A stretch of DNA of 56,968 bases from Verrucomicrobiota bacterium. Its GTDB lineage: Bacteria; Verrucomicrobiota; Verrucomicrobiia; Limisphaerales; UBA11358. The position numbers and the translations under genes were made by a program. Each line of letters starts with the position of its first letter. The first letter of the stretch is position 1. The stretch covers positions 1 to 56,968 of the forward strand of contig JAGWMQ010000008.1 of NCBI GenBank assembly GCA_028873125.1, written 5' to 3'. The notes under the pieces were generated by a model, which was given only the letters and a program-made list of their open reading frames with translations, did not search any database and was not told the DNA's origin. Below, in pieces: positions 1 to 6,167 of the stretch.

Positions 1-192
1 GTCGAGGTCAACGGCCAGCGATTCCAGGCGGCCACCGAGCATCCATTCGGCGAGGCCCACGACCACGAGCCGGCGGGTGATGGGGATGGCAATGAAAATG
101 ACACCCAGCATCAACGCTACCAACGTGGCGAACATGGTTCCGAGCAAAAGCCGGAACAGCCAACGGCGAACTGAGGGAGATGTCGTGGTCAT
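1..192 (-). CDS. Membrane protein, N-terminal part only (runs off the window)
   Basis: The first 64 codons of a gene that continues beyond the left edge. The start ATG at 192 overlaps the stop of the upstream small gene in an ATGA arrangement, which supports it as a real, translationally coupled gene. After a basic stretch (VRRWLFRLL) there is one long hydrophobic segment at about residues 15-38, followed by a second moderately hydrophobic part, so this is an inner-membrane protein with its N-terminus probably inside. I do not recognise the family. It is the third gene of a minus-strand set of three short membrane-type proteins. Confidence 0.6.
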   Translation of the reverse strand, partial: MTTTSPSVRRWLFRLLLGTMFATLVALMLGVIFIAIPITRRLVVVGLAEWMLGGRLESLAVDLD

Positions 193-558: not shown

Positions 559-909
559 GGAGCCATTGTGACAGAGATGCGAAGGCTTGCACGGAATTGG
601 ACGTCCGCCGACGTAGAAAACGCAATGCGAGCCAGCGAGGTTCACAAACCAATTGCCGAACCAAGCCCCCATTGCCTTTCGGCGGTTTCCCGACTCACGA
701 CTGTTAGGCTCATAAACTATTGCGGCGCTGAATGCAAGCCCGTGCAAAGGTCCGAGGTCGGTTGGTGGAATTTGGTCCGGCGCCTTTGCAAGCGACTCAA
801 CTCGGCCGGATTCCACTCTAATCCAAACCTCATCAATGAGTTGCGACACAGGTCAAAGCCCCCCTGTTTGCCTTGGTTGGCTTGCCCGCACCTGAGTTCG
901 GTGGTGGGT
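559..909. other. Non-coding stretch downstream of cas2
   Basis: About 350 bases between the small membrane genes and the end of cas2. This is where an array would often lie next to an adaptation module. I searched by eye for regularly spaced repeats of 20-40 bases and found none. No convincing coding signal, hairpin plus T-run, or tRNA is visible. Confidence 0.5.
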
Positions 910-1188
910 TCAAAGCACATAGTGGCTCCGTTTCTCGGACACGACAGCAAAGTTGCCGGCCGCACGGCGGCGACGTGCCGCGGTGGCATCCAGAGTGTAT
1001 GCTACAAGGTGATCTTCGTGGGATTTGATGGTTTGTTGCAGCCGCCGCCAGAACAATTCGAACCGGTCTTCATCCAGCCAGCATTCGAAGACGCTCTTTT
1101 GCACGCGCACGCCGTGGTCCTGGCAGACTTCGGCCACACGACGGAGCCGGCGTGGGCAAGCAATGTCATAGGCAACAACGCGGAGCAT
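910..1188 (-). CDS. cas2: CRISPR-associated endonuclease Cas2
   Basis: A 92-residue Cas2. The opening MLRVVAYDIA is the beta-strand with the conserved aspartate (D8), followed by RRLRRVAEVCQDHGVRVQKSVFEC and a C-terminal strand with DHLVAYTLD. In the family, Cas2 dimers bridge two Cas1 dimers to capture and integrate spacers. It follows cas1 by 77 bases. An alternative TTG start at 1270 would overlap the cas1 stop and add 27 residues (ELDWWEDLLPVQ...), so a longer form is possible. The position downstream of RT and cas1 makes this the last gene of an RT-linked adaptation operon. Confidence 0.9.
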   Translation of the reverse strand: MLRVVAYDIACPRRLRRVAEVCQDHGVRVQKSVFECWLDEDRFELFWRRLQQTIKSHEDHLVAYTLDATAARRRRAAGNFAVVSEKRSHYVL

Positions 1189-1265
1189 CTCGTCAGCACT
1201 GGGTGGATGTCGGTGAGGCTGGACGGGCAGGAGGTCCTCCCACCAGTCGAGTTCGTTGGTGGAGT

Positions 1266-2267
1266 TCAATTGAGTCGGAACGGGGCATAATTTTGGGGCT
1301 GCACCAAGGCTAGTTTGAATTGGACGGCAGCATTTTGCAACTGCTGGCGCAGCGTAGTGCGGCAACCGGCGTGTTCGGAGAGAAATTCGCGTTGCAGCCG
1401 CTGTTCGTAGTGTTGGATGAGGGTCCGGCGTCCGTCGCGGGCGAGCCACACGCCGTGGTCGTGCGCCTCGAAATGTGATTTTTGCAAGATGCGATGAGAG
1501 AAAAGTCGCAGCGTCAACGGTTCGATCAGCGCGGGACGAAACGGCTCCATCAAGTCCAGTGGGAGCGACCAGCGACCATCTTGCGGTTGGTGCAGACAGC
1601 CCAAGGCCGGATCAAGTCCGCGCACGACGCAGGCAGTGAGCAGTTCGCCATAGACCAAAGCGGAGAGGTAGGAGAGACAGGCGTTGACCGGATTGCCCGG
1701 CGGGCGCGTGGAGCGTTGACCGAACGGGAATTCGGACGGCAGAAAGTTCGACCAAGCGTTGTAGAACAAAACGGCGGCAGCGCCTTCGGAACCAAGCAAG
1801 GACGGCAAGTCTGCGGCTTGTTTGGCGTCGCGTTCGCGGGCGTTCAACGAATCGAACGCTGTGGCGTCCAACAGGTGATGGTTGGCATCCAGACGCTGCA
1901 ATAGACGGCGACCGTTGGCGATCTTGGCCTCGACCAGTTTTCTGGCAATGGCAAGGCAGGCCGCAGGGCTGCCGGCCAATTGATATTGAAGCATCCGCGA
2001 GGAACCGCGGGGCGGAGTGGGCGGCTCGAAAGAGCCCAGCAAACGCCCGTTCCATGCAAGGAAAGTGACTGGAATTTGCCGCTTGAGCAATTCGCACATT
2101 GCGGGGGTGGAGACGAACACTCCCTCCGCAAAAACCACGCGCTCCAACTCACCGAGCGGAACCTCGGATTTTAGCAATTGAGTTTCGCCGTTTGGGAGCC
2201 GAACGGTCAACCGTTCCGAGTGGAGCGAAACCTCGGCGCGGGGAGTCTGGACACTGAGAAGCGGCAT
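1266..2267 (-). CDS. cas1: CRISPR-associated integrase Cas1
   Basis: A 333-residue Cas1, the integrase of spacer acquisition. The N-terminal beta-rich domain (about 1-90) has the usual LSVQTPRAEV...ERVVFAEGVFVSTPAM pattern. The helical C-terminal domain carries the expected metal ligands: glutamate in LLGSEGAAA, histidine in LGCLHQPQDGR, and acidic residues in LPLDLMEPFRP. The ATG at 2267 lies 2 bases after the RT stop, so RT and Cas1 are separate but tightly coupled; an ATG at 2297 would overlap RT and adds only MPPPQPEVLT. Cas1 here is not fused to RT, unlike many RT-Cas1 proteins. Confidence 0.95.
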   Translation of the reverse strand: MPLLSVQTPRAEVSLHSERLTVRLPNGETQLLKSEVPLGELERVVFAEGVFVSTPAMCELLKRQIPVTFLAWNGRLLGSFEPPTPPRGSSRMLQYQLAGSPAACLAIARKLVEAKIANGRRLLQRLDANHHLLDATAFDSLNARERDAKQAADLPSLLGSEGAAAVLFYNAWSNFLPSEFPFGQRSTRPPGNPVNACLSYLSALVYGELLTACVVRGLDPALGCLHQPQDGRWSLPLDLMEPFRPALIEPLTLRLFSHRILQKSHFEAHDHGVWLARDGRRTLIQHYEQRLQREFLSEHAGCRTTLRQQLQNAAVQFKLALVQPQNYAPFRLN

Positions 2268-2269
2268 AG

Positions 2270-3337
2270 TCAAAACCTCAGGTTGAGGCGGTGGCACCCC
2301 ACCTGCAAGCGCACAACAGGCCGGCGTTTTAAACCCAGATCATATTCCACGTGCCACCAACGTGAACGCAACAGGCGGAGCACGAAGCAGCGCCAAGTCC
2401 CACTCCAATCCACCGAGTTTTCAAAAGCACCGGAGTCTTGAAAATGTCCCGAGTAATCCACGCGTTCGCCGGAACGACCCACGCCACGTAGCGCTTCCCA
2501 ACAGAGGCAACCGGGTAATGATGCGCTTTGAAATCGCCGCTGCCATGCCGTCGCAACACGTTTTGCCAGCGCACGGAGAATAGCTTCATCGTGCGGCGTG
2601 TAGAAATACGAGAGCCAACTTTGCAACGTCCTTGCGGCCTCAGCCGCCACTGCTTCGCCGTGATTGCCGGCGGTTTGCACAAGCCGCAGGAGAAATTGTT
2701 CGGCTTCAGCCAACTCCTCCGGACTGACCGTGCGGATGATTCGGCCACGGTCGTCGCGGCGAAAGGCAAAACCGAGGAAACGGGCCTCCGTGAAACCGGT
2801 AAATACCGTCTTCCGCTGGTTCAAGTGCAATCCCAGATCCTGAAGTGTTCGCACCACCAGTTCGTGTGCTTGCGATCCGAGTTCCGGGCTGGGGAGCAGC
2901 ACGAGACAATCGTCAGCATAACGCGCGAATTCCCAGCCGGCTGCCTCAAGTTCTGCATCCAAGCGATGCAGAACGATATTGGCCAGCAAGGGGGAAAGCG
3001 GACTGCCTTGAGCCAAGCCTGCAACGGAGGAACGCACCAAGCCATTTTCATAGACCCCACACACCAATATGCATTTGACCAATTTAGCGAAATGCTCATC
3101 AGCCAAATCATTTGCCAGCGTCGTGAGGACGACGGAATGAGGAACCGAATCGAAAAAATCTTCGATGTCGAGGTGCAACACGTGCCGAGCACCGCGGTTG
3201 AAGGCTTTTTCGACCGCCACGAGCGCGTCACGTGTTCCTCGCCCCGGCCGATAAGCATAACTGTGGCTGGAAAAACGTCGTTCCCATACGGGCGCAAGAA
3301 TTTGGGCGGCAGCCTGCTGCACGACGCGGTCCATCAC
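2270..3337 (-). CDS. CRISPR-linked reverse transcriptase, N-terminally short
   Basis: Reverse transcriptase of the group II intron-like type. Visible motifs: MDRVVQQAA (end of RT block 1) at the very start, SSHSYAYRPGRGTRDA (block 2), HLDIEDFFDSV (block 3, catalytic D), GLAQGSPLSPLLANI (block 4), FARYADDCLVLL (block 5, catalytic YADD at 140-143), LGLHLNQRKT (block 6) and RFLGFAF (block 7). Members of this class normally have 40-60 residues before block 1, which are missing here. The GTG at 3337, or ATG at 3334, overlaps the cas10 stop (GTGATG). The RT frame stays open upstream to 3505 without ATG, GTG or TTG codons and still reads GRLPCV just before the start. RTs beside Cas1 allow spacer capture from RNA in known systems. 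Confidence 0.9.
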   Translation of the reverse strand: MMDRVVQQAAAQILAPVWERRFSSHSYAYRPGRGTRDALVAVEKAFNRGARHVLHLDIEDFFDSVPHSVVLTTLANDLADEHFAKLVKCILVCGVYENGLVRSSVAGLAQGSPLSPLLANIVLHRLDAELEAAGWEFARYADDCLVLLPSPELGSQAHELVVRTLQDLGLHLNQRKTVFTGFTEARFLGFAFRRDDRGRIIRTVSPEELAEAEQFLLRLVQTAGNHGEAVAAEAARTLQSWLSYFYTPHDEAILRALAKRVATAWQRRFQSASLPGCLCWEALRGVGRSGERVDYSGHFQDSGAFENSVDWSGTWRCFVLRLLRSRWWHVEYDLGLKRRPVVRLQVGCHRLNLRF

Positions 3338-5451
3338 GCAGGGAAGCCGTCCACGTGGCGAGAGAAGTCGAACAACTCTGCGAGCACTTTTCTTGCTTCG
3401 GTCGAGGCGTGTGCTGAGGGCGAATCGGGGGTGACGCCACGGAACGTTAATTGCAGAGCCTGGGCGCAGTCGAGGGCGTTCCGGGCGGGCAGCATCGTCA
3501 GGACATCATCGCCGCCCGCGTAAAGAAGTTGTCCGCCGAACGCCTTCACGATAGGTCCGGCACAGTAGAGGCTGAAGTTCGAGAGCGCTTCGGACAACGC
3601 CGCGTGGTAACCCGGGGAAAGCGGTCGCTTGACTTGCTCCGCCGACACCAAGGATCGAGCAGCATCCCAGTGTTTCAGGAAATACTCCTGTGCTTTCTCC
3701 GCGAGGCTGTTAACCAGAGGCGCGGCTTTTTCACCGCTAACCCACTGACCCATGTCGTCACCGTCCATGGCGAGGACGGCATAGTAGGATTCCTGTGGCT
3801 TCAGCCTGTCCAAGTCGGAGTCGGCTTCATCCCAGAAGAACGGCTTGCGACTGCCGGACGCGATCTCGATGACCGACTTGAAATGCTCCCGCAATGCGTG
3901 TCCGACATCGAAGTCGAAGAGACCGTTGAGACTGTCCCTTCCGGTGGAAAGAAAAGCCCGCGCCCAAAGACGCTTGATGACGGTCAGCGCTCCATATATT
4001 TGGCCGCCGATGAAATGGCGCTCAGCTTGGGGATGCTCACGGGTCTTTTCGCCAAGCAGCGGATGGTTCCGAAGCAGTTCCCAGAAGCGCTTATGCTCCT
4101 TGCCGCCGAGCACTTCACTGCGGCCGTCGAGATGGTCCTTCGGCACGCCGTCGGCTTCCAACTGGCCGGCGCGGTGCCAGGGGGCAAAGCCACGGGCATT
4201 CTTGCGTGCGGCGAATTTCCAGTCGGTGACAGCGTAATGCAGCGCCCAAGTGAAACCGGCATTTGAGCTCGGTCCATAGCTTTCACGTTCATTCGCGGGA
4301 ATAAACTCTTCGGCCCAGCGTTGTAAGAGCCGCAGCGGATGCTGATTCCAACCGCCGTGCAACGGAGGTGTGCCCGCAGCCGCAGATTGCAGCGCCGCTC
4401 GCGTGTCGGTCCAAGGATGCACCACCCAGTCCACGATCGGGAAGCGAGCGACCTGCGCGTGCCAGTGCTGGTCCCAGCCTGGGCACTGGCCATTGAGTTG
4501 CGATTCCAAGAAAGCCTTCACACTTGCGACGATTCTGCCCCACACAGCGTTCACGGCAGCGGAAGCCAATTCCGCCAGTTCATTCGCGCGAGCCGCCGGC
4601 ACCAGAGCAAGGAAGCGATTCGGCAAATTGGGGGTTAGGAGTTCGTTTTCGTGGCTGGCGCGGAGCTTGAGGTTGCCAAAATAACCGCGCTTCCACCAAT
4701 GAAAGTCGGCCAAGGGCAAGCCACGCATTTGCGGAAAGACGATTGCATCGGGGCCGACCCCGGTGACTTCGGCTCCGTTGGCTAAATTTCCACCTTCTGC
4801 CACCGCGAGCATGGCTTGGGCAATCAGAAAACTAAGCAGATAGCTGCCGGACCACAGGTCTTGAGTCTTCCGCGCCTGCGCAATGAAGTCCTGCACTGGC
4901 CCAATCTGGAACAGCAGGAAAGCCGGACGCCCTTCGCATGCGCTGAACGCAGCGGCGAGCGCGTTGTGATGCCAGAGGGTGTGGTCGGGAATCCGCGTAT
5001 CGGCGACGAGATAGGCAAAATGGCTATTCTTCTCTCGCGCTGCCAATTCTGGCCACAGTCGCCACCCGGTGATGAATTTCCGTTGCCAGTCCTCGGCATC
5101 AGTCAAGGCTGCGGCCTCCAACGCCCGCGTCAATTCAGTTTCCAACTGGGCTGTGGTTGGGGGGAAGGCGCCTGCCCTGAGTCGTCCTCCGCCTAGCGGA
5201 TGCCGGAACTCCAGCCAGCTTTCCTTCCAATCCACACGCAGCCCGGATTTCGCGGGATCAGGGAAAATGAGGCGATCTGCGGCCGCGGCCTGCCAGTCCG
5301 AAGATTTTTCAAACGCGACCATGTCCTCCACAGAAAGTCCGAAACGGTTCAAGAATGAGTCGCGCTGTTTTTCATGGTCACGGATGCCGACGGGTTTGTG
5401 CGGCGGGTCATGCAGAAAAGCGGCCAATTTCTGTTTCCAAATTTCGTTCAT
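3334..5451 (-). CDS. cas10: Type III CRISPR Cas10 (Cmr2-like), C-terminally truncated
   Basis: A 705-residue Cas10 of the Cmr2 type. At the N-terminus FLHDPPHKP carries the HD pair of the nuclease domain. The Cmr2 signature LLFQIGPVQDFIAQARKTQDLWSGSYLLSFL is spread over about residues 180-215 (the middle of the zinc/HD-palm linker region). The first palm core reads VLAMDGDDMGQW and the second palm LLYAGGDDVLTMLPA, with GGDD at about 646. The protein then ends only about 57 residues later, without the SAG-type strand or the helical D4 domain found in full-length Cmr2 (usually over 850 residues). The ATG at 5451 (MNEIWKQKLAAF) fits family starts; a TTG at 5472 is also open. No cmr1/3/4/5/6 genes are nearby. 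Confidence 0.88.
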   Translation of the reverse strand: MNEIWKQKLAAFLHDPPHKPVGIRDHEKQRDSFLNRFGLSVEDMVAFEKSSDWQAAAADRLIFPDPAKSGLRVDWKESWLEFRHPLGGGRLRAGAFPPTTAQLETELTRALEAAALTDAEDWQRKFITGWRLWPELAAREKNSHFAYLVADTRIPDHTLWHHNALAAAFSACEGRPAFLLFQIGPVQDFIAQARKTQDLWSGSYLLSFLIAQAMLAVAEGGNLANGAEVTGVGPDAIVFPQMRGLPLADFHWWKRGYFGNLKLRASHENELLTPNLPNRFLALVPAARANELAELASAAVNAVWGRIVASVKAFLESQLNGQCPGWDQHWHAQVARFPIVDWVVHPWTDTRAALQSAAAGTPPLHGGWNQHPLRLLQRWAEEFIPANERESYGPSSNAGFTWALHYAVTDWKFAARKNARGFAPWHRAGQLEADGVPKDHLDGRSEVLGGKEHKRFWELLRNHPLLGEKTREHPQAERHFIGGQIYGALTVIKRLWARAFLSTGRDSLNGLFDFDVGHALREHFKSVIEIASGSRKPFFWDEADSDLDRLKPQESYYAVLAMDGDDMGQWVSGEKAAPLVNSLAEKAQEYFLKHWDAARSLVSAEQVKRPLSPGYHAALSEALSNFSLYCAGPIVKAFGGQLLYAGGDDVLTMLPARNALDCAQALQLTFRGVTPDSPSAHASTEARKVLAELFDFSRHVDGFPA

Positions 5452-6093: not shown

Positions 6094-6167
6094 TGGAGCG
6101 GGCGAAGGGAATCGAACCCTCGTGTGAAGCTTGGAAGGCTTCCGTTCTACCATTGAACTACGCCCGC
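6094..6167 (-). tRNA. tRNA-Gly (anticodon TCC)
   Basis: Reads GCGGGCG acceptor arm, GTTCAATGGTAGAAC D arm, an anticodon stem GAAGC/GCTTC around loop CTTCCAA (anticodon TCC at 6135-6133), and AGGGTTCGATTCCCT T arm, closing with CGCCCGC. The 3' TCCA is encoded. All four stems pair. It decodes GGA/GGG glycine codons. Confidence 0.97.

What the first reader, a model, noticed from the sequence alone, without database searches (positions are those of the whole stretch)
910..5451. Minimal cas10-reverse transcriptase-cas1-cas2 locus without other effectors or an array
Seen: Cas10 of the Cmr2 type, RT, Cas1 and Cas2 in one tight minus-strand operon, with no cmr1/3/4/5/6, cas6, ancillary nuclease or CRISPR repeats in 0.5 kb on either side. 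Known: RT-Cas1 systems acquire spacers from RNA and normally sit with full type III effectors. Inference: either a streamlined system in which Cas10 directly serves RT-linked acquisition, or a remnant that may still capture spacers for arrays elsewhere.
Basis: partly seen in the sequence, partly recalled or inferred. Interest (0 to 1): 0.8.

Follow-up and report, generated by a model that had tools for sequence, protein, structure and literature searches.

The report
Deletion remnant of RT-linked III-B CRISPR
This is not a minimal new CRISPR system but the wreck of an ordinary one: a deletion (or, less likely, an assembly join) cut off the end of the Cas10 gene, the start of the reverse-transcriptase gene and everything that relatives carry between them, leaving Cas1, Cas2 and one decayed CRISPR repeat.

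Summary
The Cas10 reading frame stops matching its relatives at about residue 701-706 of ~909, losing the end of palm domain 2 and the whole C-terminal domain. The RT starts at about residue 105 of 458. The two breaks meet within about 25 bp (about 3346-3370). Intact relatives of the same order (G521, G343) have cas10-cmr3-cmr4-cmr5-cmr6-cmr1-(other genes)-RT-cas1-cas2-array, with 8-16 kb between the two points that touch here. The window's own MAG (94% complete) shows no RAMP gene, no Cas6, no second cas10, RT or cas1, no missing Cas10 C-terminus or RT N-terminus, and no other copy of the repeat. All frames are still open, so a real deletion would be recent; a chimeric contig cannot be excluded without reads. 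Cas1 and Cas2 are intact and could be active, but nothing suggests a streamlined Cas10-RT-Cas1-Cas2 system. Ordinary, low interest.

The parts
3334..5451 (-). cas10/cmr2 fragment: N-terminal region with HDPP motif, Cmr2_N, palm2 up to and just past GGDD; C-terminus missing
   Evidence: TIGR02577 E=8.5e-52, profile only to 466/510; 70% identical to G087 Cas10 residues 9-706 of 909, match ends at 3358; alignment
3346..3370 (-). deletion (or misassembly) junction where Cas10 homology ends and RT homology begins
   Evidence: Cas10 match runs to 3358 (clear similarity to about 3370), RT match starts at 3346
2270..3346 (-). reverse transcriptase fragment: YADD motif and C-terminal part kept, first ~104 residues missing
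   Evidence: TIGR04416 from position 73/353; 66% identical to residues 105-458 of the 458-aa RT of G581/L001; alignment
1266..2267 (-). cas1, full length (333 aa), putative catalytic E/H/D retained
   Evidence: PF01867 E=1.2e-75; 83% identical over 1-333 to G581; alignment
910..1188 (-). cas2, full length (92 aa)
   Evidence: PF09827 E=1.5e-18; translation; 81% identical to the L001 Cas2
702..909 (-). leader-like stretch between cas2 and the lone repeat
   Evidence: alignment with L001 and L002 leaders (shared TCGGACCTTT..GCTTGC..TTC blocks)
665..701 (-). single diverged CRISPR repeat GTCGTGAGTCGGGAAACCGCCGAAAGGCAATGGGGGC
   Evidence: 27/37 identical to the L001 repeat; best simulated match 13 mismatches; no other copy in the genome
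1..192 (-). start of a membrane-protein gene cut by the contig end; its homologue in L001 lies directly upstream of RT
   Evidence: 66% identical over residues 1-64, no other piece in the genome

Best explanation
[quoted passage not shown] Its ancestor most likely had the order cas10-cmr3-cmr4-cmr5-cmr6-cmr1-accessory genes-RT-cas1-cas2-leader-array, as in relatives of the same order. One internal deletion removed everything from within the cas10 palm2 region to within the RT N-terminus, probably 8-16 kb, and the array shrank to one repeat (or the rest lies beyond the contig end). Interference is expected to be dead: no backbone subunits, and Cas10 without its C-terminal domain. RNA-derived acquisition is also expected to be dead, because the RT lacks its N-terminal region. 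Cas1-Cas2 may still be made and could integrate DNA. Shown: both truncations, the junction, the intact relatives, and the absence of other cas parts and repeats from the MAG. Inferred: a true deletion rather than an assembly join, that it was recent, and the loss of function.
For: Cas10 stops at residue ~706/909 and RT starts at ~105/458, meeting within ~25 bp. G521 (L101: 44% Cas10, 45% RT, 54% Cas1, same repeat 3' end) has cmr3-4-5-6-1, a Csm6/NE0113-like gene and membrane genes between cas10 and RT, 15.9 kb between the homologous points. G343 (L100) has the same order, about 8.4 kb. G014 (same genus) and G087 (closest Cas10) have cmr operons upstream of an RT-less cas1. Own MAG: no RAMPs, no Cas6, one Cas1, one RT and one Cas10 match, both fragments, no other repeat copy above background.
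Against: No reads or second isolate, so the join could be an assembly or strain chimera. The closest RT-cas1 relative (G581) shows no cas10 within 5.6 kb upstream of its RT, and the closest Cas10 relative (G087) has no RT before its cas1, so the cas10 and RT halves may not have shared one operon in the immediate ancestor. The MAG is 94% complete and the contig ends 909 bp past cas2, so lost parts could lie in unassembled sequence.
Confidence: 0.77

Rival explanations
1. Assembly or strain chimera: the population carries an intact cas10-cmr-RT-cas1-cas2-array locus and the assembler joined the cas10 side to the RT side.
For: All reading frames on both sides are still open, as expected if no real decay has occurred; the locus sits at the edge of a contig in a 205-contig MAG; the CRISPR surroundings of the relative bin101 hold duplicated pieces.
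Against: No long shared word was found between the two sides in relatives (at most 8 bp) to mislead an assembler; none of the missing sequence was found on any other contig of the MAG.
Confidence: 0.19
2. A streamlined functional system in which Cas10, RT, Cas1 and Cas2 work together in acquisition.
For: Cas1 and Cas2 are complete, and the four genes are consecutive on one strand.
Against: Cas10 and RT are both cut exactly where they meet; no relative with this order was seen among the loci of 384 genomes searched for Cas10 and 320 for Cas1 (flanks were read only for selected loci); no array.
Confidence: 0.02
3. Adaptation-only remnant (compatible with the deletion reading): Cas1-Cas2 still feed spacers into an array that lies beyond the contig end.
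For: Cas1 keeps its conserved residues, leader and one repeat remain; about 6% of the genome is unassembled; [quoted passage not shown]
Against: No RAMP effector genes or further repeats found in the genome; the repeat has lost the GAGAC/GAAGAC end shared by the relatives examined.
Confidence: 0.1

Closest known systems
RT-associated type III-B CRISPR-Cas with separate RT and cas1 genes (here: G521/L101, G343/L100)
   Same: Homologous cas10, RT, cas1, cas2 in the same order; same 3' part of the repeat (CCGAAAGGCA[A/T]TGG); group-II-intron-like RT directly before cas1
   Different: Window lacks cmr3-4-5-6-1, accessory genes, the cas10 C-terminus, the RT N-terminus and all but one repeat
RT-cas1-cas2-array module of MAG bin101 (L001/G581)
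   Same: 83% identical Cas1, 66% identical RT, collinear leader and repeat
   Different: There the RT is full length (458 aa) with an array of 21 repeats and no cas10 directly upstream; type III RAMP genes lie elsewhere on the contig and on another contig
Type III-B loci with decayed effector genes beside an RT-Cas1 (Arthrospira platensis III-B-RT; PMC5513706 reports 'mutational atrophy' of cas10 and cmr6)
   Same: Effector decay next to an RT-linked adaptation module
   Different: In Arthrospira the arrays persist; here the RT itself is cut and the array is gone or unassembled

Membership tests
RT-associated type III-B CRISPR-Cas (functional) | Cas10/Cmr2 with complete palm2 and C-terminal domain | tested here: not met
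   homology ends at residue ~706 of 909
RT-associated type III-B CRISPR-Cas (functional) | Cmr3/4/5/6/1 backbone genes | tested here: not met
   no PF03787 match in the whole MAG at E<=1; none between cas10 and RT
RT-associated type III-B CRISPR-Cas (functional) | Complete RT next to or fused to cas1 | tested here: not met
   N-terminal ~104 residues missing; YADD kept
RT-associated type III-B CRISPR-Cas (functional) | Cas1 and Cas2 | tested here: met
RT-associated type III-B CRISPR-Cas (functional) | CRISPR array with cognate repeats | tested here: not met
   one diverged repeat, no others in the MAG; contig end 664 bp beyond it limits the test
Remnant of an RT-associated type III-B locus | Order and homology of remaining parts match an intact relative, with a gap at a defined junction | tested here: met
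   L101 and L100
Remnant of an RT-associated type III-B locus | Junction present in the organism's DNA, not only in the assembly | not testable with these tools
   no reads held
Known CRISPR-RT clades (1-13 of PMC6013744) | Placement of the RT in a published clade by phylogeny | not tested
   No tree was made; clade reference sequences were not assembled. Nearest sequences found here are the RTs of L001, L101 and L100

The most novel reading that the evidence does not exclude
The truncated Cas10 and RT are retained and, with whole Cas1-Cas2, form an effectorless acquisition complex that writes into an array outside the assembled sequence.
Probability: 0.02. Interest if true: 0.6.

Novelty: new member of a known kind. 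Interest (0 to 1): 0.1.

Why it matters
It removes a tempting but false candidate for a minimal RT-linked CRISPR system and shows that truncation at a shared junction should be checked before a compact cas operon is called streamlined. The intact relatives found on the way (L100, L101, L001) are better starting points for studying acquisition with separate RT and Cas1 genes.

Tried and rejected
Considered a functional Cas10-RT pair: rejected because both proteins are cut at the same ~25 bp. Considered the missing pieces being elsewhere in the genome: searched with a full-length RT, a full-length Cas10, RAMPs and Cas6; none found. Considered an array elsewhere: pattern search gave only background-level near matches. 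Looked for long homology at the junction that would explain recombination or misassembly: at most 8 bp in relatives. The dN/dS values for cas1 (0.12/1.7), RT (0.28/3.1) and cas10 (0.22/3.1) reflect long divergence from relatives with saturated dS and cannot tell whether selection still acts after the break; the cas2 value in that call used a wrong frame and is not used, and the cas2 rows come from the same wrong-frame query.

Full report
What is there. The minus strand of 910-5451 carries, in order of transcription, a Cmr2-type cas10, a group-II-intron-like RT, cas1 and cas2. The window is an entire contig (C187, 56,968 bp) of a 205-contig, 94%-complete MAG. The cas2 end is therefore only 909 bp from a contig edge.

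The first two genes are broken. Profile matches already hint at it: Cas10 reaches only 466/510 of TIGR02577 and 96/133 of the palm2 domain, and the RT begins at 73/353 of TIGR04416. Full-length relatives settle it. The G087 Cas10 (909 aa, 70% identical) matches over residues 9-706, ending at window 3358. The RT of L001/G581 (458 aa, 66% identical) matches over residues 105-458, beginning at window 3346. In the alignment, clear Cas10 similarity stops at 'LFDF' (about 3370), and RT similarity begins at 'LPCVMDRVVQ'. Both losses thus meet at one point, which fits one event better than two unrelated truncations. The RT keeps its YADD motif and Cas10 keeps HDPP and GGDD, but Cas10 lacks the rest of palm2 and the C-terminal domain, and the RT lacks its N-terminal ~104 residues.

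What relatives have in between. In G521 (L101) the same strand reads cas10, cmr3, cmr4, a Cmr5-like small gene (by position and eye; no profile match), cmr6, cmr1, genes without a family match, a CRISPR-associated Csm6/NE0113 ring nuclease, several membrane or unknown genes, RT, cas1, cas2 and an array. The points that touch in the window are 15.9 kb apart there. G343 (L100) has cas10, cmr3, cmr4, cmr5, cmr6, cmr1, one or two unknown genes, RT, cas1, cas2, array, about 8.4 kb. In G014, same genus, and G087, the closest Cas10, the cmr operon leads to a cas1 without RT.

The rest of the genome. The MAG has no RAMP protein, no Cas6, one cas1, one cas10 and one RT match, both the window fragments. 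The missing Cas10 tail and RT head were found nowhere else.

The array. It stands where the first repeat stands in L001 and L002, behind a recognisable leader. Its 3' end GGGGGC departs from the GAGAC/GAAGAC ends of the relatives. A search of the genome for the conserved repeat end found no other exact copy, and the near matches were no more frequent than those of the reversed control pattern. Whether spacers once lay beyond it, or an array continues past the contig edge, is unknown.

Function. Inferred from established knowledge of type III-B complexes: without Cmr1, 3, 4, 5, 6 no effector complex can form, and a Cas10 lacking its C-terminal domain would not be expected to assemble. An RT without its N-terminal region should not polymerise. 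Cas1 and Cas2 are complete and could be active. The open frames of the two fragments, over 2,100 and 1,070 bp, argue that a deletion is recent, or that the join is an assembly artefact. No shared word longer than 8 bp between the two sides in relatives argues mildly against an artefact, but reads are needed.

Comparison with the known. CRISPR-associated RTs adjacent or fused to cas1 in type III systems are well described (PMC5513706, PMC6013744), and decay of effector genes beside an RT-Cas1 has been reported in Arthrospira (PMC5513706). No RT phylogeny against the published clades was made. [quoted passage not shown] The locus is a broken member of a known kind.

Noticed in passing
window 1-192 (-); L001 3810-5597: A membrane-protein gene that lies directly upstream of RT in L001 begins downstream of the lone repeat in the window and is cut by the contig end; the rest of it is not in the MAG. 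This could mean a rearrangement or a duplicated unit beyond the contig.
   Followed up: partly
window 6094-6167 (-): A tRNA-Gly (TCC) gene lies about 640 bp upstream of cas10 on the same strand, a common insertion point for islands; no att repeat was sought.
   Followed up: no
L001 7998-8495: Between cas1 and cas2 of the nearest relative sits a small gene resembling 23S rRNA intervening-sequence (four-helix bundle) proteins; judged by eye, not scanned.
   Followed up: no
L002 5999-6995 and 8600-9056: The same bin (bin101) carries a second, 5'-truncated cas1 with cas2, leader and a few repeats, and a further copy of the cas2 end, leader and first repeat about 2 kb on: a duplicated and decaying piece of the same locus.
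   Followed up: partly
L001 14828-16699: A second, divergent RT and cas1 (about 30% identical) lies in one 1005-aa open frame on the same contig as L001, about 10 kb or more from type III RAMP genes (L063): possibly an RT-Cas1 fusion.
   Followed up: no
L101 4712-8905: Several membrane or unknown genes lie between the Csm6-like gene and RT in G521; the one closest to RT has no Pfam match and may be linked to the RT.
   Followed up: no
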